64,000 bases of DNA. It comes from Desulfuromonadales bacterium (GTDB taxonomy: Bacteria; Desulfobacterota; Desulfuromonadia; Desulfuromonadales; BM103). The stretch lies in the NCBI GenBank assembly GCA_030145195.1, contig JAQYVY010000009.1, positions 1-64,000 of the forward strand, written 5' to 3'. Under the pieces are notes generated by a model, which was not told where the DNA came from, ran no database searches, and saw nothing but the letters and a program-made list of their open reading frames with translations. Below, piece by piece: positions 6,756-28,512 of this stretch (position 1 is the first letter of the stretch; each line of letters begins with the position of its first letter). The translations under genes and the position numbers were made by a program.

Positions 6756-6999
6756 GTTGCGCTTTCGCGCAGCTGTTGATCCAAAGCTGTTTCTTTAAAT
6801 TATGTCCTCTTGGTTTTATACAGAGGTTGTCTGGTTTTTTTATTTGATTGCAGGAGGGGAAAAGATCTTGGTTGACGATTTCATCGTCGGCCTTTCAGGC
6901 TGAATGTTCTCAGCCGTTAATTATCCCCACCAAAATTTTATTCCTTTTGGTTTGCAGCGCATCCGCAAACCTGGGCGTGTTTTTATTCAGGAGGTGGCT

Positions 7000-9900
7000 A
7001 TGATTACCCGCATTCTCGCGTGGTTTTTGGGGGTATTTCTGTTGTTTGCTTCTTGTCCGGTGTTTGCTGGACAGACGGGGCTGGAAAAAGGGTTGAATGG
7101 ATCTCTCAAGGACGGTGACCGGATCATTCAGCAGCTCAAAAGCAGGATCTCTGATGGCAAGCCTGTTCAACATCAACTGGAACAACTGACCTTTCTTGTA
7201 GATGATCTCGAAGCGACCCATCTCCTCATGCAGGAGCGGTATCGCCTGCGTCTTGCTCAGGCTAATGACCTTGGAGACAAAGCGTCAGAGCGTCAGGCGG
7301 CGATGGCGGAGAGCTACCGTCAGGCGATGGACGAACTGCTGAGCCTGCTTGGTCAACTCCAGCGGGATGGTGTTGCCGACATTAACCTCCTTGAGCAGAT
7401 TGAAAACCTCCTTGAGCAGATTGAAAACCTCCTTCAGCAATTTACCCCACAACAACAGCTGCCAGTCCACGGCCTTCTTCCGTACCAACATCTCAATTAC
7501 AGCCAAACCACACCGACCATATCGCTAATGGTTGAACCCGCTTACCGCAGTGGTCAGACGACCTATGTCAGTGCTGACCTGCAAGGTTCACCCGAAGCCC
7601 CGATCAGCAAGGAAATTACAGACCAAGCTAAAGCCATTGCCGCCTTGGCTGGCTCCCAGAACTGGGACCCGGTCGCAATTTATGAATGGGTCAAGAACAA
7701 TATTGAGACCGAGTGGTACTTCGGGGCGATGAAGGGGGCCGAGGAAACCTTGCGTCAGGGCAGTGGTAACGATGCCGATCAGGCGGCGTTGCTGGTTTCT
7801 TTGCTGCGGGCGTCTGGTTATCCAGCGCGTTACGTGCGCGGTGTGATCGAGTTCTTTCCCGGTATCGATGCGGTCAAGTCGCTGACCGGTATCGATGATC
7901 CAGTTGAGATCGGTGAGTTTTTTCGCAAAGCCGGTATTCCGTATCAGTCGGTGATGAACGGTGCGGTGATCGAGAACTTTCAGGTTGAGCATGTCTGGGT
8001 CGAAGCTTTTGTTCCTTACGCTAACTACCGTGGGGCCATGGCTGATGACCAGGGCAAGATCTGGCTGCCGCTCGACACTTCGATCAAGGTGGTTGGGTAT
8101 ACCGAAACCGGTTCACTTGATCTCTACAGTGAAGTCGGCAATCCACTTTCGACCATTCGTGACGATTATCTGAGTACCAGCCAGACTCTGTCCCCTGTGG
8201 AATATCTTCAGCAGGAGGTTGAGACTTTCCTGACCTCAGTTGCTCCCGGAACGATTTTTGCTGATGCGCTGCATGACCGCATCCTGAAGTCGGAGAATCA
8301 ACACATCATTCCCGGAACTCTCCCGTATAAGGAGATTACCATTACTGGTGAGTACAGCGCCTTGCCGCAGGAGTTGATCCATACCGTTCGGTTGCTGGCG
8401 GCCTCATCGGCACCGGAGAGCTTGCCGATTTTCGATATTGTTTTTCCGGTTTATCACCTCTCCAACCAAAAAGTTGTGGTCAGTTTCGAACCGGAGACGG
8501 TAGCCGATCAGGAAATCATCAATAGCTGGGCCGGACTCGACAACACTCCTGCTTATCTGGTGCGCTTACGGCCGGTGCTGATGGTCAATGGCGAACGGTT
8601 AATCGTCGGGCAGGAAGGTTTAGCCTCGGGCGCGGTGTTCGATTTTAGTGTTACGTTGAATTCGCCCAGCGGATCAAGCGGTTATACCAATCAGGTCTTG
8701 ACCGGCTACCCGTACGTCATGGGAATTGTTGCTCAGGATGCGGTTTTGCCTGAAGCGGTGACTTTGGAAAACACTGTGATTGATCTGCTCCATGGCGTAG
8801 CGCTCAACTACATTTTTCAATGGAATCAAGCGGAACAGGAACTTGCCGAACTGCTGAATCTGCAAACGGTTCGACCACTGCCAACCGTGGTCAGCCTCAG
8901 TGGGATGGTTGAGGTCACCGAACTGCTGGGTGAGCCACAGGATGTGACGTGGAGGGGCTTGTTCATGGACGCCGACCTGCGCGTGGTCGAGACGTCTGTT
9001 CGCAAGGTTTTTGCCGATGAACGCGACAAAACCTTTATGCAACTCTCTGCGTTGCAGGGTTCAGTGCTGGAGCACCGCCTCTTTGAAGAAGCTTTCGGGG
9101 TGGAGAGTATTTCCACGGCCAAGCTGTTCGGCTTGGCAAATGCCAGTGCCATTTCAATTCTAGACATTAATGCCGCTAACGTTGATGCCGTTGTGCCGAT
9201 CCTGCCCTATGCCGATAACGTTAAGACCGATATTCTTGACGCTGTAGCACAGGGAATGACGGTGCAGATTCCGGCCAATATGCTGACAGTTCAAGACTGG
9301 ACGGGCTTCGGTTATGTCAAGGAGAATCGGGCTACTGGCGAAGTTGGCTACATGCTTTCCGGTATGACTGCAGGAGGCATGACTGCAATCACCCCGAAGC
9401 GTTGGACCTTTCCACATATCGGCGCTTTTGAAGCACCTTATTCTCTCCAGTCCAACAATGATCCAGTTGCCGCAGTGTCTATTCACAAGGTTTATGGCAC
9501 CGATTATATGACTGGGACTGCGGGTGAGCAAATGTCTGAGCCGCTGGCGGTGCTGGTGCGCGATATTGAGGGCCGTCCGGTTGCCGGTGCCGAAGTGACC
9601 TTTACTATCTTGAGCGGTGGCGGTGCTTTCCCTGAGGCACAACAGTCGCTGATGGTGACCACCGATGATCGAGGTCTGGCCTGGACTCTACCGAAGCTGA
9701 CCCTCGGACCGAATATTATGGCCGATCCGACCACCTACACAGCTGATGGTTACGAATATGCCTCTTATGCGCGAGAAAATAGAGTCACTGCTGCTTTGGC
9801 CAACGGGACTCATTTGCTTCAGCCATTTGTTGCCATAGCTCTTCCTGGAATCCCGGCTCAGATGGCTCGCCTAACCACGCAGGTCTCTGGCACTATTTTG

Positions 9901-12900
9901 CAGTATGCCGGGGAAGTTGGGGTTGGGGTTGCCGACCAGTATGGTAATCCGGTGGCCAATGCCCCGATTCAGTTCGTTGCCGGGGCGCCGACAACCTGGA
10001 TGGGTTGGTGCAACGTTGATGATGCCAATCAGGCCAAACTGGACTTACAGTTGGCAACTGACGAAGTGTGTCTTCAGACTTTGCCGAGTTGGGGCGAGTG
10101 TGCCACTTCTGGCAGTATTGTTGGGAAAACCTGGAGTAACGGCGTCGTTTCCGCCGGTGTCGTTTTGGGCAGCTATCCAGATGGCAAATATCCTATCACA
10201 GCCAGTTACGTTGGGGTGGCGCCTGCTCCATCGGCGGTGTCATTTATCGCTTACACCGCCGAAGCAACTCCCGGCGGGTTCTGTGGCGGGGATACGCCAC
10301 CGAGCAATTATTTCACCCTGCTTCGTGAAGACAGCTTGAAGCGTGTTCGTCCGGCGGCAGTTCCGGTCACGGTACGGGCCAAGGCCGAGATGGTCGCTGA
10401 AGGTGTACGTGCAGAAATTGGCAGTCAGAACTTCGATTGCAATAACGAGACGGAAGGCTGTCCGCAAGTTCAAGGTGATCGTGCGTTCGATTTCGCAGAA
10501 CCTGACAGGGTCAGCCTCAGGTTTGCTGGCAACCCGAGTTTGTTAAACGAAACGGCACCAGATTTGTATGAAAGCGAAGTTATCCTTGCTCTTGGCGGCA
10601 ACGATATTGCTATCCATGCCTCCGCCGAGCGGACACTCGATCTCTACAAAAATAGCTGTGAACTCGGGTGCGCCAGCCAGGCGACACCCCAGTTGGTTGA
10701 GTATACGGCAGATTGGACTGTTGCCTATACCGGCGTCGCTATCGACATGCCGGACGCAGTCACGGTCAAGTTGGATGAGGACGGTTATCCCGTTGCCGCT
10801 GTTCCGGTTTCTTACACAATTTTCCCCGTTGACTATGATGCTGTTTCGGCCTCCTTTCTGGTTTACGAGGAAGACTCCCTGACTCATGTGGTCTCAAGCG
10901 ATACCATGGCTACCAATACCGATACGATTCCAAGCGGGTTATGGTTTGATGACCAGAAGAATTATACGGTTCAGGTTGTACTCAATTACAACTGGGGTGA
11001 GTCCGAAATCTGGAGCGACAAGATACCGGTTGTTTTCGGTGACCATCTTATCTCTGGCGGCGATTTCACTGCGACGCGAAAGTACCTTGTTAGCGAATTC
11101 GATTCGACAGTGCCAGCTGGTCTCGGCAGCGATACGCAAGATTTTCATCGGGTTTTCGCCTTCAACCTGTCTGCAAGCGCCAAAGTCAAAGTGTCTTTTC
11201 TCGACGATGAGAGGGTTGAACAATCGATTCTGATCCCAGAGGCTAATTTAGCTGTCGGTGATTATAACTTTGTCGTCGATTATGATCAGATCATCGCTGC
11301 CGGTTTTAGCCCCTTAAGTAACCCGGAATTCTATATTCAGATCAAACAGGTCGATGATGCCAACGGCCAGGTGACCAAGATATCCTATCGCGGTCATCTC
11401 AGTGAACAAACCAGTCGGGCCAAAATGCTCGGCCAGACCATGGTGCACGATGTCATGCTTCAGGCTGGTTCCCTCAACCTCTCCCGCACCGATCTCACGG
11501 TGCCGGGGCGCGGACCCGATTTTGCATTTTCGCGCAGTTACAACAACCAGAACGCTTCCGATGAACGCAACCCGCTAGGCAATGGCTGGAGCCATAGCCT
11601 TGATCTGCGTTTGCGGTTGTTGAATTATGAGAATGGTGGCAACAATTCCGTGCCGGACTGGGTCAATACCCTCAAAGGCAGCTTTTTCGCAAAAAATCAG
11701 ATTCCCACCGCTCCGACTCTGGCGGACTGGAACCAGGTGCAGGTCAACGGTACGGTTTTCAAGCGCGATTCGAGTCGAACCTGGTATGCCCAGCGCGGCA
11801 ACCACGGTCGGCTTGAGGATGTTGTTGATCCAGAATCATCGGTGTTAACCGGTTATAAATTCATCGCCAAAGACGGCACCACCTACACCTATGATCGGTT
11901 CGGCGGCGTGCGTCAGATGCTGGTCACCAACATTGAAGATCGCAACGCCAATGCGCTGAACTTTACTTATGACGAGGTGTACAACCGGCTGGAAAAAGTG
12001 ACTGATGCGGTTGGTCGTGAGTTTGTCTTTGCCTATGAGTCCTTCAGCGTCCCAAGTGAAGACCCGTCGCGCCTGGTCTCGATCACCGGGCCAGATAACT
12101 TGTTGCAGACTTATACCTACGACCTGAACGGTAATCTGCAAGCAGCCCAACGTGGTGAACTGGTTGAGACTTACGAGTATGTGCGGGAGTCGGGGATCAG
12201 CAAAGCCGACTTCAACCTGGTGCGCGCCATCGATGCTAACGGCAACAGCACCCGCTATGTTTATCACGAGCCGGGCGAGATAGATCTCAATCTGTTCAAT
12301 TACCTCCCGGTGGTCAAGGGCCAGGATATGGTCAAGCAGGTGATCTACCCTGATGGCAACGCCGCCACCTTCCAATACAACGGTACCGATAGCAACACCC
12401 GTACCGTCACCGATCTGCGTGGTTTCGACACGCTCTACACTCTCAATGCCCATGGCAACCCGCTCAAGATTGAAGAGCCGCTTGGCAAGACCACCGAGAT
12501 GACCTGGTCGACCAATGAGGGCAAGCCGGATAATGTGATGACCAGCAGAACGGTTGTGGCCGGGACATTGTCTGAACCACGTTCGTTAACAACTTATTTT
12601 GAATACGATGTTAAGGGCAATGTTACAAAGGAGACCGACTCCTATACCAACTTCATCCAGACGACCTGGAATGAGTATGGTCAACCGCTGACTCGTATTG
12701 ACCGCAACGGTGTTGAACAACACTGGACTTACGATCCGGTAATCGCCGGGTGTCTCAATAGTCATGAAGTGGAAGTTGAAGAGGGTGTTTTCAAGCAGAC
12801 TAGTTCCACCTGCTACGCCACCGGAGAAGTGCAAACGGTCACTGACCCGCTCGGTCATGTCAGTCGCACCACTTATGATCTTTACGGCTACCCAGATCTG

Positions 12901-15900
12901 GTCACGGTTGCCGAAAACACCGTCGATCAAGCAAGCACCGACTACGACTACGATATCCGTGGGCGCAAGGTTGCTGAAACAGATCCGTTGGGCAACCAGA
13001 CGACCTATGCCTACGATGATCTTGATTATCCGACAACGGTTACTGCACCGCTGCATGCCAGTTACGCCCTGCCTGCCGGGTCGACCAATATCAAGCTGAC
13101 CGACTACGACGCGCTCGGCAACCTGTTGTCCGAGATTGACCGCACCGGCCTGACGCTGACCTACAGCTATACGCCGCGCAACCAGGTGAAAACAATTACC
13201 CGCAGCGCCAGCGCCGCCAGCTATGGAGTGAAGGCCTTCGGTTATGATGGCAACGGCAACCTGACCAGCGAATCAGACTGGAAGGGGGTGGCCACCAACC
13301 ATAGTTACGATGCGCTCAACCGCCGCGATAGCACCACCAATCGCCTCGGCGACAGCATGAACATGGGTTACGATCTGGCTGGCAACCTGACTCAGGTGAC
13401 TGACTTCGAAGGTCGGGTCACCGATTACGAGTATGACGATCTTAATCGGCAGACGAAGGTGATTCAGCCGCAACTGGCGAATCAGGCTGTGCGTGGTGAG
13501 ATTGTCAGCACCTACTATCTCGAAGCCGAGCCGAAGAGTAACCTTGCAACAGTCATCGACGCCGAAGGCAACCTCACCAGCTTCGAATACAATGGTCGCT
13601 ACCAGAAGAGCAAACGCACCAACGCCCTGTTCGATGCGTTTGTCTGGCAATATGACGATGCTGGCAACCTCTCTAAAGAGATTGACGAAGAGCTTAACGA
13701 GACGCGCTACGAGTACGATAAGCAAAACCGGCGCACCTTCACCTATCGCACTCTCGATGGTCGCGAATTCGTCGCTGCAAAAGTACAGTACGACGCCGCA
13801 GGGAATGTGACCTCTGTCAAGGATGCCAACCAGAAGATTACGACAAGTCTTTACGACGAGTGGAACCGTCCGTGGCAGATGATCAGCCCGATTGATGCCC
13901 ATGCCGGTGTTAGCTACACCACTGCAACCGAACGGGATGGCGAGGGCCGTGAAGTCAAGATCACTGATGGCAACAACAACCCGCGTACTTTCGAGCGTGA
14001 TGCTCGTGGTTTGGTGACCTCCGCTACCGATGCCGAGTCGCAGTCCACCATTTACAGCTACGATACCAACGGCAATGCCCTTACCGCGACCAACGCGCGT
14101 GGTTTCATGACCCGTACCGGTTACGACGCCGAAGATCGCAAGCTGCTGACGATTGAAGCTGAAGGAACGTCTGAAGAGCGCACCAGCGGTGTTGTCTTGT
14201 ACGACAAGGTCGGCAACTCGCTGCAGGTACGCGATGGCAACGGCAACATCTTTGTCACCGAGTACAACGATCTGAACCTGCCGTGGCAGCAGTACGATCC
14301 GGCACCGTTTGATGCCAACTTTGTTGAAGTTCTTTACGATAAGAATGGTCGTGCGACCAGCGTCACCAACCGGCGCGGTCATACCACGACCACCAGCTAC
14401 GATGCCCTCGGCCGCGTCGATACGGTCACCGATCCGGCACCATTCGCTGCCCAGATCGTTGTCACCACTTACGACAAGGTCGGCAATGTCCGGACGGTGA
14501 AGGATAAGCGTGGCATCGTCAGCGAAACCATTTATGACGATCTCTATCAGGCAACCGAGCAGCAGCGTGATGGTATTCGTATCGTCACTAACGAGTACGA
14601 CGATGCCGGTAATTTGACCGCTACGGTCGATGCCGAAAACAACCGGGTGGAGTACGCCTACAGCAGCCGTAATCAGCCGGAGAGGATGACTTTTGTTAAT
14701 CCAGACGGCACAGATTACTTCACCGAACGGTTCTACGATGGTGTTGGTAATCTGGTTACCCACAGCAACGAAGAAGGGGAAGTTGCTACCACCACCTACG
14801 ATAAGGAGAACCGGCAGAAGACGATTGAGTTTGCCGGTGAGACGACTGAGAACGTTTATGACGAGGTCGGTAACCTGATACAAGTCATCAAGCCGAAGCT
14901 CAATGGCAGCGTCATGGCCTACGATGGCCTCAACCGTCTGACCAGCGTCACCGAAGGTGGTCTGCTGACGACCATCTATAGCTATGACGCCAACAACAAC
15001 CAGCTCTCCCAGGCCGATCCGCTCGGCAACGTCGTTGAGTTCACTTACGACGAGCTGAATCGCAAGAAGCAGCACATCCAGAACAAGGCGAGCGGCAACT
15101 TAGTGGTCAACTATGACCTCTACGACGCCGAAGGCAATCTGACACAGATGACTGATGCCAAGGGGCAGCTCTTTGGTTATGCGTACGACGAACTAAATCG
15201 TCTGACCCAGATCGATCACCCACTTGAGCTCACCACGCCGTTTATGGCTATCGACAAGGTTGAGACCGTCTATGACGCGAACAATAACGTCGCAACCATC
15301 ACCGAAACCAAGCAGATCAACGGCGGTGGCACCCAGACCGATACCACCGTCAACGTCTGGGATAATTTTGATCGCTTAACCAGCAGCACCCAACGCGGCA
15401 TCACTCTCAGCTACGGTTACGATTACAACGGTAACCGCACCAGAGTGAGCACGGTCAACGGTAGCACGACTTATGGCTTTGATCATCGTAACCGCCTCGA
15501 AACGGCGACTGTTGGAGTCGAACCGAATCTCGAAGTAACCAGCTACAGCTACACTCCCGATGGCTTGACCGATACGATCACTTACCCGAACGGGGCCAGC
15601 GCCGACTACGCCTACCACCCGACCAACCGGGTGCAGTCGATCACCCACACCGACAGTGGTGCCGTCACCATCTCCAGCTACAGCTACACCTACGATACCA
15701 ATGGTAACCGCACTGAGCAGATTGAAGTGCAGGGTGGGGCAAGTGAAACCACCGGTTACGTTTACGATGATCTTGATCGGATGGAGAGTTACACCGTTAC
15801 CAGTGGTGTCGATACCACCATCACCGGCTACACCTTCGAAGGGTATAACCGTAAAACTGAAACTGTTGTCGTCAATGGCAGCACCACGGTTGATAAGACC

Positions 15901-17517
15901 TATCACTATGACGAAACCAACTGGCTGAATACTCTGGACGATAACCTGACCTCGGCGGTTATCAGCTATCAATACGATGCCAACGGCAACACCACCTTCA
16001 AGGCGGATAGCAGCAAGCCGGGTGAAGAGACCACCTTCACCTACGACGTTTCCAACCGCCTGGTGCAGACCGAGCAGAACAGCTCCGTCCTTGGCCAGTA
16101 CGATTACAACTCTCAGGGGATGCGGATTCGCAACTATGGCAGCGAGCGTGGTGATGTTGATTACTTCTACGATGATGGCGCGGTGTTGGAGGAGTACGTC
16201 GCCGGTGCCGGTGGTGGCTTGCTGGCTCACTATCGCTACGGTAATCGGCTCTTAAGCCTTGAGACCGGAACGGAGACGCAGTATTACCATCACGAGGCTC
16301 TGGGCAGTACGGTGAATTTGACGGGTGACGATGGCCTGAACAAGGTCAGCTACAGCCTTGATCCTTGGGGGCATATTCGTAATCAGCTTGGAACCACCAT
16401 TAACCGGCAGATCTTTACCGGGCAGGAGCATGATGAGAATACCGGACTGATTTACTTTGGCGCGCGGTATTACGATCCTGATACGGCGCGGTTTATCAGC
16501 CAGGATAGTTATCTTGGGGAGGCGGGGACGCCGCCGAGTTTGCGCCGGTATTTGTATGCTTATTCGAATCCATTGGCTTATATCGACCCGGATGGGCATA
16601 TAGCGATTTTCTTTGATGGAACCGGAAAAGATAAGGACAATCATCGCCTCGCAAAAACGAATATTGCGAAGCTTTATGAAGCTTATGGCGATGGAAAGGC
16701 TATATACAAGGAGGGTGTTGGGAGTGATTGGTACACCATGTACGCGCTGGGCGGTGTGTCTGGAGCGGGCGGCTCTTCACGACTTGATAGCGCTTTTGAA
16801 GAATTTGTTGATGCTTTTAATGCAGCTGATGACAAAAACAAAGTTATCGATATTTTTGGATTCAGTCGTGGCGCGGCCTTGGCCAGGGCTTTTGCCAATA
16901 AGATCAAACACGAAGGGATAGATGATCGTTCAAAGCTGATCGGCTATGAAACCATAACGGAGGAAAATGAGGATGGAACCGCCCGGATGGTCAAAAAGCC
17001 GATTTACGGAAAGTTCGAAAATGTAAAAGTTCGCTTTATGGGTCTTTTTGATACGGTCGCTTCTTTTGGTGTTCCTGGAAATGATGTTGATTTTGGATAC
17101 GACATGTCTGTAGACGAGACCTTTGTCAAAGAGACAAGGCATGCTGTGGCTCTTAATGAGTATCGTGGTTTGTTTGATTTGCAGTCTGTTGCCAAGAGCA
17201 AAGCTGCACAGTTCCCCCTAAATGTTGTTGAAATGGGTTTTTGGGGCGCGCATTCCGATGTTGGTGGTGGGTATAAGGATGATAATGGTGGCAAGTCAAA
17301 TGAACTGGCTAATATACCTCTGAACTGGATATATAAAGAGGCGGAAAAGAGCGGCGTTACCTTAAAACCGTTGGATAGAGAGGATACGGTTTTGCCTGAT
17401 ATCGGCAATCTCTCATTGAAAGAGTTGTCGGAAAAGTATATTCATGATTCTAGGTCTTTCTTCGGAAGGTGGGTGGGTGATTATGAAAGGGATGTTTTCT
17501 ATTCTGGTAACAAGTAG
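7000..17517 (+). CDS. Giant exported Rhs/YD-repeat protein with C-terminal DUF2235 (Tle1-like) lipase domain
   Basis: 3505 residues. Order: signal peptide (1-23); coiled coil (30-170); transglutaminase-like domain (about 214-361); bacterial Ig-like domains (about 821-1088); Rhs entry segment (about 1468-1541); long YD-repeat shell (about 1618-3084); Rhs core 'GLIYFGARYYDPDTARFISQ' ending 'YIDPDGH' near 3200. A variable tip of about 305 residues follows, with 'FFDGTG', 'GFSRGAALA' (Ser about 3289), 'LFDTVAS' (Asp about 3351) and 'GAHSDVGGGY' (His about 3418), the signature of DUF2235/Tle1 phospholipase effectors. ATG 7000 has a near-perfect AGGAGGTGG box. The transglutaminase-like domain has Asp258 where the catalytic Cys should be. 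A TTG mini-ORF (6868-6903) precedes it. The next gene overlaps its 3' end and may encode immunity. Likely a polymorphic antibacterial toxin in a protective shell. Confidence 0.9.
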   Translation: MITRILAWFLGVFLLFASCPVFAGQTGLEKGLNGSLKDGDRIIQQLKSRISDGKPVQHQLEQLTFLVDDLEATHLLMQERYRLRLAQANDLGDKASERQAAMAESYRQAMDELLSLLGQLQRDGVADINLLEQIENLLEQIENLLQQFTPQQQLPVHGLLPYQHLNYSQTTPTISLMVEPAYRSGQTTYVSADLQGSPEAPISKEITDQAKAIAALAGSQNWDPVAIYEWVKNNIETEWYFGAMKGAEETLRQGSGNDADQAALLVSLLRASGYPARYVRGVIEFFPGIDAVKSLTGIDDPVEIGEFFRKAGIPYQSVMNGAVIENFQVEHVWVEAFVPYANYRGAMADDQGKIWLPLDTSIKVVGYTETGSLDLYSEVGNPLSTIRDDYLSTSQTLSPVEYLQQEVETFLTSVAPGTIFADALHDRILKSENQHIIPGTLPYKEITITGEYSALPQELIHTVRLLAASSAPESLPIFDIVFPVYHLSNQKVVVSFEPETVADQEIINSWAGLDNTPAYLVRLRPVLMVNGERLIVGQEGLASGAVFDFSVTLNSPSGSSGYTNQVLTGYPYVMGIVAQDAVLPEAVTLENTVIDLLHGVALNYIFQWNQAEQELAELLNLQTVRPLPTVVSLSGMVEVTELLGEPQDVTWRGLFMDADLRVVETSVRKVFADERDKTFMQLSALQGSVLEHRLFEEAFGVESISTAKLFGLANASAISILDINAANVDAVVPILPYADNVKTDILDAVAQGMTVQIPANMLTVQDWTGFGYVKENRATGEVGYMLSGMTAGGMTAITPKRWTFPHIGAFEAPYSLQSNNDPVAAVSIHKVYGTDYMTGTAGEQMSEPLAVLVRDIEGRPVAGAEVTFTILSGGGAFPEAQQSLMVTTDDRGLAWTLPKLTLGPNIMADPTTYTADGYEYASYARENRVTAALANGTHLLQPFVAIALPGIPAQMARLTTQVSGTILQYAGEVGVGVADQYGNPVANAPIQFVAGAPTTWMGWCNVDDANQAKLDLQLATDEVCLQTLPSWGECATSGSIVGKTWSNGVVSAGVVLGSYPDGKYPITASYVGVAPAPSAVSFIAYTAEATPGGFCGGDTPPSNYFTLLREDSLKRVRPAAVPVTVRAKAEMVAEGVRAEIGSQNFDCNNETEGCPQVQGDRAFDFAEPDRVSLRFAGNPSLLNETAPDLYESEVILALGGNDIAIHASAERTLDLYKNSCELGCASQATPQLVEYTADWTVAYTGVAIDMPDAVTVKLDEDGYPVAAVPVSYTIFPVDYDAVSASFLVYEEDSLTHVVSSDTMATNTDTIPSGLWFDDQKNYTVQVVLNYNWGESEIWSDKIPVVFGDHLISGGDFTATRKYLVSEFDSTVPAGLGSDTQDFHRVFAFNLSASAKVKVSFLDDERVEQSILIPEANLAVGDYNFVVDYDQIIAAGFSPLSNPEFYIQIKQVDDANGQVTKISYRGHLSEQTSRAKMLGQTMVHDVMLQAGSLNLSRTDLTVPGRGPDFAFSRSYNNQNASDERNPLGNGWSHSLDLRLRLLNYENGGNNSVPDWVNTLKGSFFAKNQIPTAPTLADWNQVQVNGTVFKRDSSRTWYAQRGNHGRLEDVVDPESSVLTGYKFIAKDGTTYTYDRFGGVRQMLVTNIEDRNANALNFTYDEVYNRLEKVTDAVGREFVFAYESFSVPSEDPSRLVSITGPDNLLQTYTYDLNGNLQAAQRGELVETYEYVRESGISKADFNLVRAIDANGNSTRYVYHEPGEIDLNLFNYLPVVKGQDMVKQVIYPDGNAATFQYNGTDSNTRTVTDLRGFDTLYTLNAHGNPLKIEEPLGKTTEMTWSTNEGKPDNVMTSRTVVAGTLSEPRSLTTYFEYDVKGNVTKETDSYTNFIQTTWNEYGQPLTRIDRNGVEQHWTYDPVIAGCLNSHEVEVEEGVFKQTSSTCYATGEVQTVTDPLGHVSRTTYDLYGYPDLVTVAENTVDQASTDYDYDIRGRKVAETDPLGNQTTYAYDDLDYPTTVTAPLHASYALPAGSTNIKLTDYDALGNLLSEIDRTGLTLTYSYTPRNQVKTITRSASAASYGVKAFGYDGNGNLTSESDWKGVATNHSYDALNRRDSTTNRLGDSMNMGYDLAGNLTQVTDFEGRVTDYEYDDLNRQTKVIQPQLANQAVRGEIVSTYYLEAEPKSNLATVIDAEGNLTSFEYNGRYQKSKRTNALFDAFVWQYDDAGNLSKEIDEELNETRYEYDKQNRRTFTYRTLDGREFVAAKVQYDAAGNVTSVKDANQKITTSLYDEWNRPWQMISPIDAHAGVSYTTATERDGEGREVKITDGNNNPRTFERDARGLVTSATDAESQSTIYSYDTNGNALTATNARGFMTRTGYDAEDRKLLTIEAEGTSEERTSGVVLYDKVGNSLQVRDGNGNIFVTEYNDLNLPWQQYDPAPFDANFVEVLYDKNGRATSVTNRRGHTTTTSYDALGRVDTVTDPAPFAAQIVVTTYDKVGNVRTVKDKRGIVSETIYDDLYQATEQQRDGIRIVTNEYDDAGNLTATVDAENNRVEYAYSSRNQPERMTFVNPDGTDYFTERFYDGVGNLVTHSNEEGEVATTTYDKENRQKTIEFAGETTENVYDEVGNLIQVIKPKLNGSVMAYDGLNRLTSVTEGGLLTTIYSYDANNNQLSQADPLGNVVEFTYDELNRKKQHIQNKASGNLVVNYDLYDAEGNLTQMTDAKGQLFGYAYDELNRLTQIDHPLELTTPFMAIDKVETVYDANNNVATITETKQINGGGTQTDTTVNVWDNFDRLTSSTQRGITLSYGYDYNGNRTRVSTVNGSTTYGFDHRNRLETATVGVEPNLEVTSYSYTPDGLTDTITYPNGASADYAYHPTNRVQSITHTDSGAVTISSYSYTYDTNGNRTEQIEVQGGASETTGYVYDDLDRMESYTVTSGVDTTITGYTFEGYNRKTETVVVNGSTTVDKTYHYDETNWLNTLDDNLTSAVISYQYDANGNTTFKADSSKPGEETTFTYDVSNRLVQTEQNSSVLGQYDYNSQGMRIRNYGSERGDVDYFYDDGAVLEEYVAGAGGGLLAHYRYGNRLLSLETGTETQYYHHEALGSTVNLTGDDGLNKVSYSLDPWGHIRNQLGTTINRQIFTGQEHDENTGLIYFGARYYDPDTARFISQDSYLGEAGTPPSLRRYLYAYSNPLAYIDPDGHIAIFFDGTGKDKDNHRLAKTNIAKLYEAYGDGKAIYKEGVGSDWYTMYALGGVSGAGGSSRLDSAFEEFVDAFNAADDKNKVIDIFGFSRGAALARAFANKIKHEGIDDRSKLIGYETITEENEDGTARMVKKPIYGKFENVKVRFMGLFDTVASFGVPGNDVDFGYDMSVDETFVKETRHAVALNEYRGLFDLQSVAKSKAAQFPLNVVEMGFWGAHSDVGGGYKDDNGGKSNELANIPLNWIYKEAEKSGVTLKPLDREDTVLPDIGNLSLKELSEKYIHDSRSFFGRWVGDYERDVFYSGNK
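7384..7440 (+). repeat. 21-bp tandem repeat inside the Rhs gene
   Basis: Two exact copies of a 21-base unit (7384-7404 and 7405-7425) and a third decayed copy encode the heptad NLLEQIE in the coiled-coil region. In-frame gain or loss of a unit would change coiled-coil length by one heptad. Confidence 0.8.
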
Positions 17518-17971
17518 GTTGGAGAATTTGTTTTTTTTGAACGGGCGAAAGGACGTTTTTCGAAAAAACGCAGGTTATCTCCTTAGTTTAATGCTCTTTC
17601 TTATTAACATGACCGGGTGCGCAAACACGGCGCCCTATAATGTAATGATGCATAATTCAGGAGTTGCCGATTTTAGCCATGCAGTGATTGTCTTTGGTCA
17701 GAAACAGATCTCCAGTGGATGGGTGTCTCCAGGTAATTCTAAAACCAGTATAGACCTGACTTCTTCGATCCCGGAAAAAGCGATTGTTCGTTGGCGACGA
17801 GGCGAAACGAACTCTTTCGAAAAAGAAGTTGCGGTGAAAAGCCAACTGCCACCGAGGGCTACCAATGAATATTACACACTGGTCTTTGCTGTTGACGAAG
17901 ATGAAAATGTGCAGTTTAAGGTGGTTCTGTGTATGCGAGACTTCCCCTGTCCGGAAAAATATGCGAAGTGA
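17483..17971 (+). CDS. Small lipoprotein, candidate immunity protein for the Rhs lipase tip
   Basis: 162 residues from ATG 17483, overlapping the Rhs stop by 35 bases. A hydrophobic segment ends in the lipobox 'INMTGC', so the mature protein is a lipid-anchored periplasmic protein of about 115 residues. It is beta-rich with late cysteines (VVLCMRDFPCP). Known Tle1-family lipases are paired with a downstream periplasmic or lipoprotein immunity protein, and position, size and anchor fit that role; no family was recognised by sequence. The start is uncertain: TTG 17528 with GGAG just upstream gives a shorter signal peptide. The base composition is visibly more AT-rich than the Rhs core, as in exchanged toxin-immunity cassettes. 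Confidence 0.65.
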   Translation: MKGMFSILVTSRLENLFFLNGRKDVFRKNAGYLLSLMLFLINMTGCANTAPYNVMMHNSGVADFSHAVIVFGQKQISSGWVSPGNSKTSIDLTSSIPEKAIVRWRRGETNSFEKEVAVKSQLPPRATNEYYTLVFAVDEDENVQFKVVLCMRDFPCPEKYAK

Positions 17972-18111
17972 AATAAGAGGGTACGCTGGTAACTAACGTA
18001 ACTTACTGAAAAAGGTGGATGATCCTGCCGTGGAACGGAAGCCGATCCCCAAGAGTCAACAGTCAGAATTTAGAAGTGTCGCGTAAGCAACATCAGTTTT
18101 AACGATCGTTG

Positions 18112-18248
18112 ACAACCGCATACACCAAGCAAAAAGCAAGGCACGGGATGGTAGCATATTCCTTTGCCGGGTTACGGTGGTTTCAATGAGTTGTGGCGAT
18201 GGCGAGTCCGGCGATGTTAAGTCCCCAATGCTTGGTGTATGTGGTTGT
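18112..18248. repeat. Long inverted repeat (20-bp arms) with structured 97-base spacer
   Basis: Arms 18112-18131 and 18229-18248 are complementary at 19 of 20 positions. The spacer contains a further GCCGG...CCGGC pair, so the transcript could fold into a two-level hairpin. It fills most of the 313-base gap (17972-18284) between the lipoprotein and the next gene. No open reading frame or transposase is present. It could be a MITE-like relic, a structured RNA or a recombination site; none is proven. Confidence 0.6.
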
Positions 18249-18284
18249 TAGAGATTTATGAGTTGTATGGAGGAGTTTTACCTC

Positions 18285-18644
18285 ATGAAAACATTGATGA
18301 TTTCGTTATTGATACTTATTGTTTGCACTTCGTTCGCCTTTGCGACCGATCTGGAGGGTTACACCTTTCTCAAGATATCTGGATCGGATGCCCGCGCCGT
18401 GGTGGAAACACCGCAAGGTGAGAAGCAGTTGGTTTCTCCCGGAGACATGCTCGGCAAGGCAAGGGTGACGGAAATTACCGAGAACCGGGTGATGCTGGAG
18501 CGACCGAGTAAAACCGGGCCGGAAGTGCTGATTGTGCGACTAAAAAACGGTAAGCAGAAGATTGACCGGCTACAGAAAATGCCGGTGAAGCGTAAAGTGG
18601 TTGTTGCTGAACCAGACAAGGCGAGTGCGCAGTTCGGTTACTGA
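18285..18644 (+). CDS. Small exported protein with a GspC/PilP-like domain
   Basis: 119 residues: signal peptide to about residue 20 (CTSFAFA), then a compact beta domain 'AVVETPQGEKQLVSPGDML' followed by 'ARVTEITENRVMLERPS'. This pattern (a setting value, then G-D-x-L, then V-x-E-I-x-x-x-R-V-x-L) is that of the homology region of type II secretion GspC or the pilus protein PilP. ATG 18285 has GGAGGAG upstream. It lies between the Rhs module and the giant secreted protein and may help one of them reach the surface. That role is inference only. Confidence 0.6.
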   Translation: MKTLMISLLILIVCTSFAFATDLEGYTFLKISGSDARAVVETPQGEKQLVSPGDMLGKARVTEITENRVMLERPSKTGPEVLIVRLKNGKQKIDRLQKMPVKRKVVVAEPDKASAQFGY

Positions 18645-18725: not shown

Positions 18726-21700
18726 ATGAAAGGCACTAAATCTCTGTACGGAAGAGCTGTGGTCGCTCTTCCGGCTTTGTTGTTTGCGCTCTTGCTTTCA
18801 GCGCCGCAGTTGGTCCTGGCGCTCACCGCCAACACGCTTGGCGATTATCAAAATGTTACGGTCATGGAGGTGTCGGGCAACTATGATGCCGTCGATACCT
18901 ATGGACAACCGGACCTGTCGGAACGGCGTACGCTCGCCCAGGAGTTCTACCGTACCCATGGCGACGACTACGACTTCTTGGTCATCTTCACCAATTTCGA
19001 TTTTGTCATGCCTTCAGGGTCGAAAGCATTCTTCTCGCCTGCGAAAAATGCTGTTCATGGCATCGGCCTGCCGCGCAACAATTACACCAATACCTACACT
19101 CCAGATGGCTCCTACCTTGACCGTCTCGAAGGCACTATCGACATGGCGAATATCTCCAGCCATGTTCTCGAACCGACTGACCCTGAATTCGATGACACCC
19201 TGTTGACCCTCAGTCATGAAATGGTCCATCGCTGGGGAGCCTACGTCCAGTTTGATGATAACGGCACTGCCAGCAACGCCTTGCTCGGTCTTGATAATGC
19301 CCACTGGAGTTTCCTGCTCGATTCTGGTGGCTCAACCCTCTACGGCAATAACTGGCAGGATAACGGCGATGGAACTTTTACCTCGATCCAGCCAGAACAA
19401 GGTCAGGATAACAAGCCAATCGGCCGAATTTTCAGCGCCCTTGATCTCTACCTGATGGGTTTGATCGACAAGACCCAGGTGCCACCGCTCATCCTGATCG
19501 AGAGCACCGATGCGACGCGCGACCAGATTCCTGAACTCGACGTTACTGTCACCGGAACAGCCAGAGCCGTCACCATCGACGATATCATCGTCGTCGAAGG
19601 GGAACGTGTGCCCAGCGCAGCTGATGCGCGCAAGGAATTCCGCACCGCCTTCATCTATGCCGTCAATCCGGGAACTTGGTCAGATTCCGACCCGTATAAC
19701 CTTGGCGAACTCGCCGCAATTAATCGTCTACAGACTGAGTGGGTGAAGAGGTTCTCGATTCTGACCGACGGTGTCGGTATGGTGCACACCGATTTTGTGC
19801 TGGAGCAGGAAGCTGCAGAGACGAACCCAGGGGTAACGACGCCCACAATCAATCCGTCCATTGCACCAAGTGTTAACAACGGCGTTGCCTGGCTGGTCGG
19901 CAATCAGCAGGGCGATGGCTCCTGGCAGGACCAGCTCGGTACCGAGCAACGCGATACGGCCGCAGCCGTAACGGCGCTGAAAGACTTTGCTGCCGCGTGG
20001 AACAGTGCTCAAAGCGGTCGGGATTGGCTCTCAGGTATTACTGCAGATAATTATGATTTTTGGGCGCGTAAGGTGGTTAGCCTGGATGGTGCCGCTGTGG
20101 CTGAAATTATCAGCAGCCAGAATCCCGATGGTGGTTGGGGCAGTATGACCGGTTACCTGAGTAGCCCGGTAGATACCGCTTTGGCCTTACAGGCATTGGC
20201 GTCTGCCGGAATGACCAAAGAAACGGAAGTGGCTACTGCGGTCAACTACTTACAGTCTGCGCAGAATCCAGATGGCGGCTGGCATACTGGCAATGGTTTG
20301 AGTATGGTTCAGCCGACGGCCTATTCCATTGTCGCACTGAATGCAGTGAAGGATAGCTATGCTCTGAACACTGCTATCGCGGATGGCCTCTTTTGGCTTG
20401 GTCTCAAGCAGAACTTTGATGGTGGCTTCGGCAACAGTTCCAGTACGGTCTACGATACGGCTGCGGCTTTGGTCGCACTCAAAGAAACTGGAGCATCTCA
20501 AACGGTCACCGACGACGCAGTCACTTATTTGTCGAACAAACAGGCTGACTCTGGCAGTTGGAATGAGAGCTCTTTTCAGACCGCTCTTGCGGTGCAGGCA
20601 CTTTATGCCGGTCAGGTCGTGGCAGACCTTTCCGTCAGCCCAACAGATGTCGTGATGACTCCGACCATAGTGACGGATTATCCAAGTCAGGTGCAGGTCG
20701 GTGCCAGAATTTACAATTCGGGCAGTACCGCTGTGCCGATTGTAACTGTGGCTTTGTACTCGGACGCCGTTGCCTCTGAAAATCTTCAGGCTCAGCAATC
20801 AGTTTCCATCCCGGCAAACGGATTCGCTGATGTGGTTTTTTTGACCGTGGTGGACAGTCCCTTTGATCAGACATTTATTGTTTGCATCGATCCTGATCGC
20901 GAGATTGTGGAGGCAAGCTGGGCCAATAATCTGACTTATAAAACCTTACCGGTTGACGTTCCCGCTCCAATGATCGGGTTTGCCACAGCAAACTCTAGTG
21001 GTGTGGAGTCAGAAAATGCTTCGATTCTGTTGGAACTATCGTATGCATGGGATCAACCGTTGAGCGTTGGCTATGCTGTGAACGTCATGAGCAGTGCGGT
21101 CGATCCTGACGATTATTCGCTGGCCGTGGGCACCCTGGTTTTTGCTCCTGGAGAATCTGCAAAACGGCTTGATTTCAATATCGTTGATGATGCGCTGAAA
21201 GAAGGTGCTGAGACAGTTGTTCTTGACCTACAGAACCCGTCGGCAGGAATTCCTGGGTTGCTTCAGCACACCTACCTTATCGCCGACAACGACACTCCTC
21301 CGACCATATCTTTCGATTCGGCCGCTGGTTCAGGTTGGGAAAATGAATTGTCCGTGCCCGTTTCCGTTTCGCTTAACTTCCCCTGGCCGGAGCCAGTTTC
21401 TGTTGACTACCAAGCAGACACAGGCAGTGCCACGCAAGGTACAGATTTCAGTATAACCGTCGGCACCTTGATCTTCGCAGCGCAAGAAACTCAGAAATCC
21501 TTGCTATTGAATGTTTTCGATGACAACGCGGTGGAATCGGATGAAACCATAGTCTTGGCTCTCGAGAATCCGGTTAACGGCAGTTTGTCTCAGCAACCCT
21601 TCGTTTATACCATCAGAGATAATGATTCTGTGCCACAGCTTACGGCCAATCTATCCAGTACCGCTCAGGATGAATCGGTTGGCCCGATCATTATTAGTCT

Positions 21701-24700
21701 GACTCTGGATCACCCTTGGCTTGACCCCGTTTCGGTGTCCCTTGAGGTTGCTTCTGGAAGCAGTGCATCGGTTGGTGAGGATTTCACTCTAGGGGCAACG
21801 CTCATAACCTTCAGTCCGGGAGAAACGACGCAATCGTTCCTTCTTGAGATTTTTGACGATTATCTGGTTGAAGAGAACGAAAATATTATCATCAACCTGG
21901 TGAATCCAGTTGCTGTGTCTCTGCTCCAGGATCAGTTGAGCTATACCATTGTCAACAATGATTTCCCGCCGACGGTCACTATTGTTATGCCTGTGGACGG
22001 GACGGTCACAAGTGACAACAGACCATTGCTTCTCTACGAGGCGAGTGTTGAGAAAGTTGTTGTCACGGTTAACGGGAACGTGGTTGCGGGAGTCTCAGGA
22101 CAGGCGTTTGAGTCTCCGCTGATGGAGGGCCTGAATACCCTGCGCGTTGAAGCGACTGATGCTGTTGGCAGAGCCGGTTATGACGAAGTGTCTTTCAGCG
22201 TCGACACGACGCCACCTGGCATCACGATTGTTTCTCCACTTGAGGGGGTTACGCCCGAGCCGGAACCTTTGCTCTACTATCAGGTGAGCGATGGTGATGC
22301 GGTGGTTACGCTTGACGGGGTCATAATCAATAAGGCTTCTGGAGACCTTCTGGACAGATTGGATGATGGAGATTATCTGGTTTCGGTTCAAGCAACCGAT
22401 TCGCTTGGAAACACAGCTGAAGCCCACGTAGTTTTTACTGTGAACGCAGGCTGGGATCGTCCTCCAGTTCTTTCTGAGGAGTCTTATCCGGTCAACTTGT
22501 TACGGCAGTGGCCAAACGTGGATGAGCGCCAGCGGGAATTTCGAAACTATGCGATAGACTCCCATGGCAATGTTTTTTTCGTGGACACATTGGGGTGGCT
22601 TGGCACCTACAGTATGGAAGTCTCCAAATATGACAAAAACCTTAATTTTATCTGGAATGTGGTCATGGATTCTGGCTATGACGACAGACATTATGATTTC
22701 CATTTTTCGGAATGCGAGTCTTCTATTTATGTAGCAGGCGTTACCGAAAGTAGTGGTTGTTTTGATGACATTGGCCCCTGCACAAAACTTTATCAGGAAG
22801 ATGCTATCCTGTTTAAAATTAATGATCTCGGCACAACAGGTGAGATAGCGTGGTCTCAGCAGTGGGGAGGCGATTACGAAGATATTATTAGTGGGCTGGC
22901 TGCTGACGAGTTTGGAAACGTGTTCGTAGCGGGCTTACACAGAGAGTATTCTTCGGCGATCAATCAGGACTGGTACACTTTTGCCAGGTTTGATGCGGCC
23001 GGCAATAAAATTCTCGATATACACGACAGTGAAAAAGGATATTGTGCGGGAGTTGCTTCGGAAGGCTTTTTGTATTGCGGCTTGGGCAAGTACGATTACG
23101 ACGGGAATTATCTGTCGAATGTCAGTCAGTCCGAGGGGCTTTACGCTGCGGAACTAAAGAAGGATGGTTACTTCTATACGCTGGATGACAACCGGATTCA
23201 TAAAATTGACAAATCGGGTGAACTGATTTGGTTGTCTGAAGTCCTCGTGGACCCGCCCCTCCCAGGGTTGTCCAGTCCGTATGCTTTGTTGAGAAGCTTC
23301 ACTCTGGATGAAGCGGGCAATGTTTTCGCGTTGGGGAGAACCAATGGTGTTCTGGATGCGTCTGGAGCTCAGAGCGGGGCCGACCTCTTCCTGGTAAAAT
23401 TCGATTCCTATGGGCGTATTATTTGGGTTCGTCAGTTTGGTTCCTATTCGGATGATGATGAGGATTATTATGGGGTCGGTCTTGTTTATGGCGGTGATGG
23501 GGACCTGTATTTTGCAAACCATTCACTGGCTATAGACAGTTGGGAATTCTACAAAGCCGAAACAGCAACCGCTGAAACGCCATTGTCTTCTCCGACGAGA
23601 ACTTACTATGTCGACAGCTCGTCGGGTTGCAGTGAAGGCAAGGTCACCAAAGGGCCAGCATATGCGACGATGAGTCAAAACCACGGGGCCTGCGCTGGTC
23701 CGGATACCGTTTCTATGCGTTTTACCGGCGGTCCGAAAGATATGCTGATCGCGTATGAACCGACTGCTTACACTGAATCGACGCTGGTAACGGGGACCTC
23801 AGGGGGAAGCCTGATCTCTGCCCTGTCCGAGACAAGTGGTATGCTTTCGGTTGATTTGGTCGAAGTCGCTCCTGCCGATGGGAATATCATTCGATCTTTC
23901 GGAACGATTTCGCAACCCTTTGAGCCAAACAGGTTTGGCCAGATCACAGATTTGTCCGGTCTCAGTGGAGTTGTTCAGCCTGGGAATTCGTTTGGTATCA
24001 AGGTCGCTCTTGATGCTGATGCCCGAGGTGTTCATACCCTCCAGTGGGGGCAAGAGAGCTCCTGTCCAACTGGCACCCAACAACTTGTCAGTGTCACAGC
24101 AACACCGGTTGAGACCGAGGCACCAGTCACAACCATCAACGCCCCCATTGACGGTGCATCAGTTGTTGCAGGTTACGTCATTGTGGAAGGGGCCGCGACC
24201 GATGGTAATGGTTCTGGCGTCGCGAAAGTCGAGATTTCGGTCGATGGCGGGACAACCTGGAGAGTGGCGACCGACACCTCTTCCGATCAGTCGTGGGGTG
24301 CTTGGAAATATGTTTGGGTGGAAGCCTTCCCTGGCACCTATTCCTTGCTTGCTAGGGCTATTGACCGGGACGGCAATATTGATTCTTCAGAGCCTGAAGT
24401 CAGTATCGTTGTCGATGATTTGTCCCCGACTCTGAGTGTTGATCTAGTTATGTCTCCCACTGCGCTCACTGCTCAGGTGATCAGCGGTATAGCCACCCCT
24501 GGGGTGAACCTGTCGGTTACGATTGATTCCCCAACGGATTCCCCCGCTGCGATTTCTCCGATCATTCAAACGCCTGATGGTACCTGGGAGTTTACTGTCA
24601 GCAACATGGTGCCGAATGTTGATAATGTCCTGACCATAACGGCAATGAATGTGTATGGGTCAGTAAGTCAACCGATTACCCTCAGCGTCGACACGACTGG

Positions 24701-27348: not shown

Positions 27349-28512
27349 TTACCACACAACATCAAGCTGTTTCATGGCAAGTTTGAAGTCTGCTTCGACC
27401 TTGTCGAGGATGGCTTGAGCATATTCGTTGTTATGGACACTGTTGGTGCCATCGTTGCGCACAAATTTGAGATTGTGAAGGGCTCTCTGATAGGTTTCCC
27501 AGCCCTTGGCTGTGTCGCGCTTGGCGGCGTCGGCATCAAGCAGGGCCTTCTCAACCTCAATCCGGGTCATCTTGAGCTCTTCGATGCGAGTTGCTGTCTC
27601 AGCGCCCCACTCCTCAAAGATAGTTTTATATTCTTCGTCTTCATGGCAATCGGTGCAAGAAGAGGACGGTGGGCGATAGACGCCCTTGGTGATGCCGGTG
27701 TGACAATCAGTACAGGTCATATCTGCGGCTTCGCCGTACATCATGCCCGGAATATCTTCCAGCCCTTCAATGCCTGTTCCTTCGTTCATGGCTACTTGAA
27801 CTTCGTGGCAGACGCCACAATCGGCCATTTGTGGAGCATCATCTGGTGCGTCAGCGTGGCAGGTTAGACAGAAATTCATCCGGTCAGTTGCGGTTGCAGG
27901 ATTATGGACGATACCGAAGTGGCAGTCGCGGCAAGTCAGGTCGAACTCCTCAATATGCATGTTGTGGTCGAAGTGAGTGCCGCCGACAAAATCCTCAGTC
28001 ATGACGTCTGCCAGGCCTTTGCGTGTGCGGAAGCCGGGGTTAATAACATCGTCGAGCATCCGCATGTTGACAATTTTCATGGGGCCTGTGGTTGTTTCGC
28101 GGACGGTTTTGTTGCCTTCGTCCGAGTGACAGTAGAGGCAGTGCCATGCAGGGACCAGTTTTTCAGGTGGATTAGCGAGGATTCCCAGCTTCTCTTCTTT
28201 GGAGATGGTGAGCTGCATGTAGGTGTCTTTCAAGCCGCCCATCTTGGCTTTTGCGTATCCGAGCACTCCTGGACGACCATGACAGTCGAGACAGGAAACA
28301 CCTGCGTCGCCATGCGCCGAATGTTCCCAGGAATCAACTTCGGCCAGAGGGCCGAACCCTTGGGCTGGATGGCAAAGATGGCAGAACTCAGGTTCGGAGG
28401 TCATGTGCAGGATCTGGACGTTGATAAAGCCGAACACGACAACAAAAAGCACCGCTGCAAGGGTGAATAAGACCAGATGGCGTTTACACCAATCAAATAC
28501 GGTTTTCAGCAT
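27349..28512 (-). CDS. Octahaem NapC/NirT-family cytochrome c
   Basis: 387 residues: one N-terminal membrane anchor (about 13-32) and eight CXXCH haem motifs (CHLCH, CLDCH, CLYCH, CRDCH, CLTCH, CGVCH, CTDCH, CTDCH). The N-terminal half matches NapC/NirT quinol dehydrogenases, which pass electrons from menaquinol to periplasmic cytochromes; ImcH of Geobacter is a seven-haem relative. The last 100 residues are haem-free and coiled-coil-like. AGAGGT precedes ATG 28512. It follows the CbcL-like gene in the same direction, but a terminator and a 389-base gap separate them, so it probably has its own promoter. Confidence 0.88.
   Translation of the reverse strand: MLKTVFDWCKRHLVLFTLAAVLFVVVFGFINVQILHMTSEPEFCHLCHPAQGFGPLAEVDSWEHSAHGDAGVSCLDCHGRPGVLGYAKAKMGGLKDTYMQLTISKEEKLGILANPPEKLVPAWHCLYCHSDEGNKTVRETTTGPMKIVNMRMLDDVINPGFRTRKGLADVMTEDFVGGTHFDHNMHIEEFDLTCRDCHFGIVHNPATATDRMNFCLTCHADAPDDAPQMADCGVCHEVQVAMNEGTGIEGLEDIPGMMYGEAADMTCTDCHTGITKGVYRPPSSSCTDCHEDEEYKTIFEEWGAETATRIEELKMTRIEVEKALLDADAAKRDTAKGWETYQRALHNLKFVRNDGTNSVHNNEYAQAILDKVEADFKLAMKQLDVVW

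What the first reader, a model, noticed from the sequence alone, without database searches (positions are those of the whole stretch)
16600..17971. Rhs shell carrying a Tle1-like lipase tip, paired with an overlapping lipoprotein gene
The tip of about 305 residues after the Rhs core has the Ser-Asp-His pattern of DUF2235/Tle1 phospholipases (GFSRG, LFDTV, GAHSDVGGGY), and a lipoprotein gene overlaps its 3' end by 35 bases. The protein has a Sec signal peptide and large N-terminal domains, so it is not a standard T6SS Rhs effector. It looks like an undescribed secreted or surface-shell lipase with its own periplasmic immunity protein.
Basis: partly seen in the sequence, partly recalled or inferred. 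Interest (0 to 1): 0.78.

Follow-up and report, generated by a model that had tools for sequence, protein, structure and literature searches.

The report
Secreted lipase toxin with lipoprotein immunity
A bacterium related to Desulfuromonas carries a huge secreted shell protein whose swappable tip looks like a membrane-cutting enzyme, followed by a small lipoprotein that most likely protects the producer; this kind of weapon was described in 2012, but this tip, its guard gene and two companion genes extend it.

Summary
The gene at 7000-17517 encodes 3505 residues: Sec signal, transglutaminase-like domain with the catalytic Cys replaced, weak Ig-like match, RHS array, then from residue 3201 a 305-residue tip matching PF09994 (Tle1 catalytic domain). 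Ser, Asp and His are invariant in two alignments; the predicted fold matches Tle1-type structures best (Z 22-25; next 18.1 and 13.7). T6SS sheath genes were not found in the genome. The tip is a swappable cassette: two relatives (L101, L095) keep 51-54% identity up to residue 3200, then diverge completely; L101 has an unrelated tip followed by a SUKH immunity gene. A search with the lipoprotein alone over 395 genomes gave one significant other match, directly downstream of another RHS-borne Tle1-like tip. So this is very probably a Sec-exported polymorphic toxin with a cognate lipoprotein immunity protein. The carrier class and DUF2235 tips were described in 2012 (PMC3482391), so 'undescribed' is too strong. 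New, as far as I searched: the lipoprotein family, hydrolase fusions without RHS, and two co-conserved exported neighbours. Export route, activity and immunity are untested.

The parts
7000..17517 (+). carrier gene, 3505 aa: Sec signal, inactive transglutaminase-like domain, weak Ig-like match, RHS shell, lipase tip
7000..7071 (+). Sec signal peptide, MITRILAWFLGVFLLFASCPVFAG (by inspection)
   Evidence: no signal-peptide predictor available
7672..8076 (+). transglutaminase-like domain (PF01841, residues 225-359); catalytic Cys position holds Asp (SGNDADQA)
9517..9681 (+). Big_1-like Ig domain (weak, 17.4 bits, cut-off 34.9), residues 840-894
11452..16599 (+). DUF6531, RHS repeats and Rhs-associated core ending in DPDGH at residues 3196-3200
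16600..17514 (+). Tle1-like (PF09994, DUF2235) lipase tip, residues 3201-3505; Ser at 16864-16866, Asp at 17050-17052, His at 17251-17253
17537..17971 (+). predicted immunity lipoprotein (144 aa from TTG 17537; alternative start ATG 17483), lipid-bearing Cys at 17618-17620
18285..18644 (+). small exported protein, beta-rich in the predicted model, co-conserved with the carrier; weak GspC-like match only
18726..26945 (+). giant secreted partner (start chosen by inspection): HEMVH zincin-like motif, squalene-cyclase-type toroid, Calx-beta, SBBP and CarboxypepD_reg domains

Best explanation
The locus encodes a Sec-exported polymorphic toxin. The 3200-residue carrier (inactive transglutaminase, Ig-like stretch, RHS shell) is exported by Sec and placed at or beyond the outer membrane. 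The RHS shell encloses the C-terminal tip and probably releases it by self-cleavage near the DPDGH end of the core. The tip is a Tle1-family serine lipase that attacks phospholipids of a competing cell. The lipoprotein encoded directly downstream sits in the producer's periplasm, probably on the outer membrane, and binds and neutralises the tip so that the producer and its kin survive. Shown here: domain order, catalytic residues, predicted fold, no T6SS sheath genes found, tip swapping at residue 3200, one independent recurrence of the tip-lipoprotein pair. Inferred: outer-membrane passage (a GspD secretin is present), self-cleavage, lipid substrate, toxicity, inhibition.
For: Tip: PF09994 E 1.5e-34; PDB sequence matches 6SJL, 9J3F and 4O5P; model pLDDT 77.6, pTM 0.80; Foldseek top hits 4O5P and 9J3F; VIA Z 25.5 (4O5P), 22.7 (6SKI), 22.6 (6SJL), 22.1 (9J3F), then 18.1 for Legionella lpg2422 of unknown function and 13.7 for an ordinary hydrolase. 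Cassette: window against L101, 51.5% identity over 596 columns ending at residue 3202; 13 of 20 identical at 3181-3200 and 3 of 20 at 3201-3220; no tip-to-tip BLAST match; against L095, 53.6% over 558 columns ending at residue 3200. L101's next gene is SUKH (E 4e-20). L094 and L109: 54% identical core, no tip match, different next genes. Immunity: lipoprotein search over 395 genomes gave two matches at E <= 1e-3, itself and G323 (5.7e-5). The G323 gene's ATG overlaps by one base the stop of an RHS protein whose tip is 37% identical to ours. Of 21 non-own match places 19 had loci; only this one has such a tip in the stretch held; 0 of 5000 shuffles reach the mature-protein score. VipB and VipA not found, E. 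coli control rings. GspD present, 533 bits, cut-off 351.
Against: No activity, toxicity or binding is shown. The pair recurrence rests on one other genome; a profile search of 297 relatives of that genome added none. L008 has a compact tip 38-39% identical to ours, followed by an unrelated 330-residue gene without lipobox; its frame runs off the contig, so whether RHS bears it is unknown. Pairing is thus not universal. The lipoprotein shows no detectable match to known Tle1 immunity families: no Pfam hit, profile comparison negative against single DUF3304 and DUF2931 members and the L094 lipoprotein. L095's next gene (66 bases on) is a 271-residue protein without signal that does not look like an immunity gene. 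More than half of the closed carriers bear other hydrolases without RHS, which a nutrient-scavenging role could also explain.
Confidence: 0.8

Rival explanations
1. The carrier is a secreted or surface-displayed digestive lipase, and the lipoprotein is a dedicated chaperone, foldase or anchoring partner rather than an immunity protein.
For: 14 of 26 distinct carriers with a closed frame end in a region with a GxSxG motif and no RHS core. Pfam hydrolase families pass their cut-off in L065, L090, L091 and L127, and fall just below it in L070 and L098. Of the 12 of these 14 with downstream sequence, 11 are followed directly by a gene with an export signal by eye (the script's strict lipobox test marked only one, L115). 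Lipase-specific chaperones are known in general (recalled).
Against: The same carrier family also bears an HNH-like tip (by eye) with a SUKH immunity gene without signal, a Tle1-like tip with an unrelated lipoprotein (L094) and other tips. L070 holds orphan tip tails with further lipoproteins, by eye, as in polymorphic toxin arrays. A digestive enzyme would not be expected to swap with nucleases.
Confidence: 0.13
2. It is a T6SS Rhs effector of the Tle1 class.
For: Closest solved structures include T6SS Tle1 proteins, and in two genomes of the same order a similar tip is on VgrG-type proteins (L006 by Pfam; L003 by its similarity to it).
Against: VipA and VipB not found in a genome rated 99.95% complete; no PAAR or VgrG domain in the carrier; Sec signal at the N-terminus.
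Confidence: 0.02
3. The lipoprotein is an unrelated gene that happens to lie downstream; the true immunity gene is elsewhere or absent.
For: Found with such a tip in only two genomes; no match to a known immunity family.
Against: The one significant match in 394 other genomes lies directly behind the same kind of RHS-borne tip.
Confidence: 0.05

Closest known systems
Sec/T2SS-type polymorphic toxins with inactive transglutaminase and RHS repeats (Zhang et al. 2012, PMC3482391)
   Same: Signal peptide, then inactive transglutaminase, sometimes bacterial Ig domains, RHS filament, variable C-terminal toxin, immunity genes
   Different: The two exported neighbour genes and RHS-less hydrolase fusions are not in the passages I read; the paper is long and only passages and one section were seen
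Tox-ABhydrolase-1 / DUF2235 / Tle1 (PF09994) lipases
   Same: Alpha/beta hydrolase fold, Ser-Asp-His, close match to 4O5P, 6SJL and 9J3F
   Different: A 305-residue tip on an RHS shell, with little room for the second, membrane-related part reported for P. aeruginosa Tle1 (PMC13133936, passage); no T6SS sheath genes found
Tli1 immunity lipoproteins (DUF3304; P. aeruginosa Tli1a, PMC13133936)
   Same: Lipoprotein encoded next to a Tle1-type lipase, expected to act in the periplasm
   Different: No detectable sequence relation to the single DUF3304 and DUF2931 members tested; fold not predicted
T6SS Rhs effectors
   Same: RHS repeats with Rhs-associated core and an enclosed C-terminal toxin (recalled for the enclosure)
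   Different: N-terminal module and export: Sec signal and transglutaminase-like domain instead of PAAR

Membership tests
Tle1-like lipase (PF09994) | match to the catalytic-domain model over its cut-off | tested here: met
   120 bits, cut-off 27, model positions 3-287 of 287
Tle1-like lipase (PF09994) | catalytic Ser, Asp, His conserved | tested here: met
   S92, D154, H221 invariant in 12 of 12 and 25 of 25 rows
Tle1-like lipase (PF09994) | alpha/beta hydrolase fold of the Tle1 type | tested here: met
   predicted model; VIA Z 25.5 to 4O5P, rmsd 3.5, 268 aligned
Tle1-like lipase (PF09994) | phospholipase activity | not testable with these tools
   needs an enzyme assay
T6SS Rhs effector | T6SS machinery in the genome | tested here: not met
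   VipB and VipA: 0 matches in own genome; E. coli control rings; other T6SS genes not searched
T6SS Rhs effector | N-terminal PAAR or VgrG-type domain | tested here: not met
   Pfam scan of the carrier shows none at E 0.01
Sec-exported inactive-transglutaminase RHS polymorphic toxin | N-terminal Sec signal | tested here: met
   by inspection of residues 1-24 only
Sec-exported inactive-transglutaminase RHS polymorphic toxin | transglutaminase domain lacking a catalytic residue | tested here: met
   PF01841; Cys of 3ISR aligns with Asp, in a weak match of E 0.099; that Asp is conserved in 9 of 9 carriers
Sec-exported inactive-transglutaminase RHS polymorphic toxin | conserved carrier with unrelated C-terminal tips | tested here: met
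   identity breaks at residue 3200/3201 between window and L101, and ends at 3200 against L095
Sec-exported inactive-transglutaminase RHS polymorphic toxin | immunity gene directly downstream that changes with the tip | tested here: met
   lipoprotein here, SUKH in L101, other genes in L094 and L109; not evident in L095
Sec-exported inactive-transglutaminase RHS polymorphic toxin | growth inhibition of competitors | not testable with these tools
   needs a competition assay
Tli1 immunity family (DUF3304) | match to PF11745 or a member | tested here: inconclusive
   no Pfam match; rang nowhere, so it cannot show absence; profile comparison negative against one member only
T2SS substrate | T2SS present and needed for export | tested here: inconclusive
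   GspD present in own genome (L140); other T2SS genes not searched, dependence not testable here

The most novel reading that the evidence does not exclude
The carrier, the small exported beta-rich protein and the giant zincin/toroid protein form a dedicated T6SS-independent export, display and release apparatus in Desulfuromonas relatives, Geobacteraceae and Nitrospirota. It delivers interchangeable toxins, mostly hydrolases, with or without an RHS shell, and the zincin partner processes or releases them.
Probability: 0.25. Interest if true: 0.72.

Novelty: new variant of a known kind. Interest (0 to 1): 0.5.

Why it matters
Tle1 lipases are known mainly as T6SS effectors. Here a genome without detectable T6SS sheath genes carries one as the interchangeable tip of a Sec-exported RHS giant, with its own lipoprotein gene. 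The 2012 survey lists no immunity protein for this toxin domain (table row seen). The locus offers a compact 305-residue lipase toxin and a 144-residue partner for direct testing, and it points to an uncharacterised set of co-conserved exported genes in environmental bacteria.

Tried and rejected
T6SS origin: rejected for this genome. DUF3304/DUF2931 kinship of the lipoprotein: a similar 'P..I.VRW' stretch is visible by eye against the DUF2931 member, but BLAST and profile comparison do not support kinship; PDB sequence search found nothing (best E 1.3). Lipoprotein relatives in plasmids, viral contigs and 195 relatives: none besides itself. GspC kinship of the small exported protein: NCBIfam 18.7 bits against a cut-off of 150; the AlphaFold model (pLDDT 78, pTM 0.59) has no fold match at E <= 0.001, so GspC-like is only a hint. 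Rfam: nothing at gathering level in the window. Literature on the carrier class: judged from the listings, only the 2012 survey was clearly on this class; only open-access PMC papers are held, and no search was made for the companion genes by domain name.

The alignment used to fold the tip (A3) held only the window and loci from the search for related loci, because loci from the genome search are not among the sources that tool names. The lipoprotein was not folded: the second job went to the small exported protein, and a single sequence was unlikely to give a usable model.
Full report
Observation. The reading frame 6904-17517 is open; ATG 7000, behind a good ribosome-binding site, gives a 3505-residue protein starting with a Sec signal by inspection. 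Pfam and NCBIfam place a transglutaminase-like domain at 225-359, a weak Ig-like match at 840-894 (below cut-off), DUF6531 at 1485-1539, RHS repeats, the Rhs-associated core at 3121-3200 and PF09994, the Tle1-like catalytic domain, at 3201-3447. The genome has one PF09994 match, this one. The downstream lipoprotein frame is real, but the 35-base overlap depends on the start codon: ATG 17483 leaves an unusually long N-terminal region before the hydrophobic stretch, whereas TTG 17537 gives a normal lipoprotein signal and no overlap.

The tip. Ser, Asp and His are invariant in both alignments of relatives (12 of 12 rows; 25 of 25). PDB sequence search returns three sequences, 6SJL, 9J3F and 4O5P; 6SJL and 9J3F are titled Tle1 and TleB, and 4O5P is P. 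aeruginosa Tle1 (recalled; its title says uncharacterised). The predicted structure (pLDDT 77.6, pTM 0.80; the last 22 residues under 50) gives Foldseek top hits 4O5P and 9J3F. In the second look, Z is 25.5 for 4O5P, 22.7 for 6SKI, 22.6 for 6SJL, 22.1 for 9J3F, 18.1 for a Legionella protein of unknown function, and then 13.7 for an ordinary hydrolase. This is a Tle1-type fold; activity is not shown.

Not a T6SS effector here. VipB and VipA are not found in a genome rated 99.95% complete, while the E. coli control rings in both searches. The carrier has no PAAR or VgrG domain. The genome has a type II secretin, GspD, at 533 bits against a cut-off of 351. In two genomes of the same order a similar tip sits on VgrG-type proteins (L006 by Pfam; L003 by its similarity to L006), so the tip family moves between delivery systems. 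Tip relatives occur in 37 of 195 related genomes, the best other one 43% identical over 225 residues.

The carrier family. The N-terminal 1484 residues match 44 of 195 related genomes, some of these only in the transglutaminase part. A scan of species genomes found 56 loci, by record title in Desulfuromonadales, Geobacteraceae, Desulfobulbaceae, Nitrospirota, Myxococcota and others. One search examined 70 loci: the 56 plus 14 of the 20 fetched; several are the same contig twice. From these, 26 distinct carriers had a closed frame of at least 900 residues. Dropped were duplicates, frames running off contigs, three loci with a broken frame (L069, L088, L089) and two with short frames (L128, L134). 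Of the 26, 14 have a GxSxG motif and no RHS core (Pfam hydrolases over cut-off in four of the six of them scanned); 7 have an RHS core with a tip (L073, L080, L094, L095, L109, L135, L136); 5 have neither (L068, L103, L113, L122, L125). The RHS regex missed five of the seven, which I assigned from their C-termini, RHS hits and Pfam. Of the 24 with sequence downstream, 22 have a same-strand open frame of 80 residues or more whose first possible start lies within 137 bases of the carrier's stop; the exceptions are L070, where a transposase-like gene lies there (by eye), and L113. No chance control was made for that count.

Tip swapping. Against L101 the window's carrier is 51.5% identical over 596 columns ending at residue 3202; identity falls from 13 of 20 at 3181-3200 to 3 of 20 at 3201-3220, and the tips do not match by BLAST. 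Against L095 it is 53.6% over 558 columns, ending at residue 3200. L101's tip has an HNH-like motif by eye (no Pfam family over cut-off), and its next gene is a SUKH protein (PF14567, E 4e-20), a known immunity family. L094 and L109 show the same pattern: 54% identical cores, no tip match, different next genes. L094 has another Tle1-like tip (a partial match, E 4e-7, positions 7-122 of 287) followed by a lipoprotein. L095's next gene does not look like an immunity gene. In L070, orphan tip tails alternate with lipoprotein genes (by eye), an arrangement typical of polymorphic toxins.

The lipoprotein. In 195 relatives it matches only itself. In 395 genomes of the phylum, 21 have a match at E <= 0.1 and two at E <= 1e-3: itself and G323 (5.7e-5). 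The G323 match is a 120-residue lipoprotein whose ATG overlaps by one base the stop of an RHS protein ending in a Tle1-like tip, 37% identical to ours. That RHS protein runs off its contig, so its N-terminus is unknown. Of 21 non-own match places, 19 had loci (L192-L210); only this one has such a tip in the stretch held, about 1.5 kb each side. The mature lipoproteins score 81 against a shuffle mean of 25, with 0 of 5000 shuffles reaching it. Conversely, 14 of 395 genomes have a tip at E <= 1e-10; the two top ones, both in the query model by construction, are these two, and they are the only ones in frames over 1000 residues. Against: a profile search of 297 relatives of G323 found no further member, and L008, a compact tip 38-39% identical, is followed by an unrelated gene. 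The lipoprotein has no Pfam match and no detectable kinship to the DUF3304, DUF2931 or L094 lipoproteins tested. With Ala after the lipid-bearing Cys, outer-membrane placement is expected by the +2 rule (recalled).

Companion genes. A 119-residue exported protein (18285-18644) recurs at 10 other distinct loci, three of which also served as seeds of that search (9 of the 10 aligned). Next to it a giant secreted protein (from 18726) carries an HExxH motif kept in the four relatives checked, a squalene-cyclase-type toroid and many beta domains. Neither was found in the stretch held of L095. In four Desulfobulbaceae or Desulfobulbus records (L091, L094, L109, L127) a giant gene lies upstream of the carrier instead. 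The small protein's GspC resemblance is weak and its model has no fold match. Their role is unknown; display, release or export is a guess.

Literature. Zhang et al. 2012 (PMC3482391; passages, section 33) describes RHS toxins with a signal peptide or TM helix followed by an inactive transglutaminase and sometimes Ig domains. It lists DUF2235 as Tox-ABhydrolase-1 with RHS repeats under T2SS and T6SS, judged mainly T6SS-delivered, with no immunity protein given. The 2026 study of P. aeruginosa Tle1 (PMC13133936; passages including parts of the abstract) reports an outer-membrane DUF3304 lipoprotein that binds Tle1. The locus is thus a new variant of a described kind.

Noticed in passing
window 18112-18131 and 18229-18248: A 20-base inverted repeat (one mismatch) encloses 97 bases between the lipoprotein gene and the small exported gene; the stretch 18020-18260 folds better than 198 of 200 shuffles, and 59 bases of the interior recur at 81% on another contig, G000:C46:3478-3535. 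It may be a mobile or recombination element.
   Followed up: partly
window 18726-26945: Giant secreted protein with an HEMVH motif, a squalene-cyclase-type toroid, three Calx-beta stretches, SBBP and CarboxypepD_reg domains, co-conserved with the toxin carrier.
   Followed up: partly
L070:8926-11453: Orphan hydrolase C-terminal tails alternate with lipoprotein genes downstream of an apparent insertion element (by eye): a probable reserve array of toxin and immunity cassettes.
   Followed up: no
L113, L122, L125: Three Nitrospirota carriers have the N-terminal module without RHS or hydrolase motif, ending in a short domain after Ig-like repeats; their function may be non-toxic.
   Followed up: no
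window 27349-28512: Multihaem cytochrome gene with NapC/NirT and cytochrome c7 domains, near the toxin locus on the other strand.
   Followed up: no
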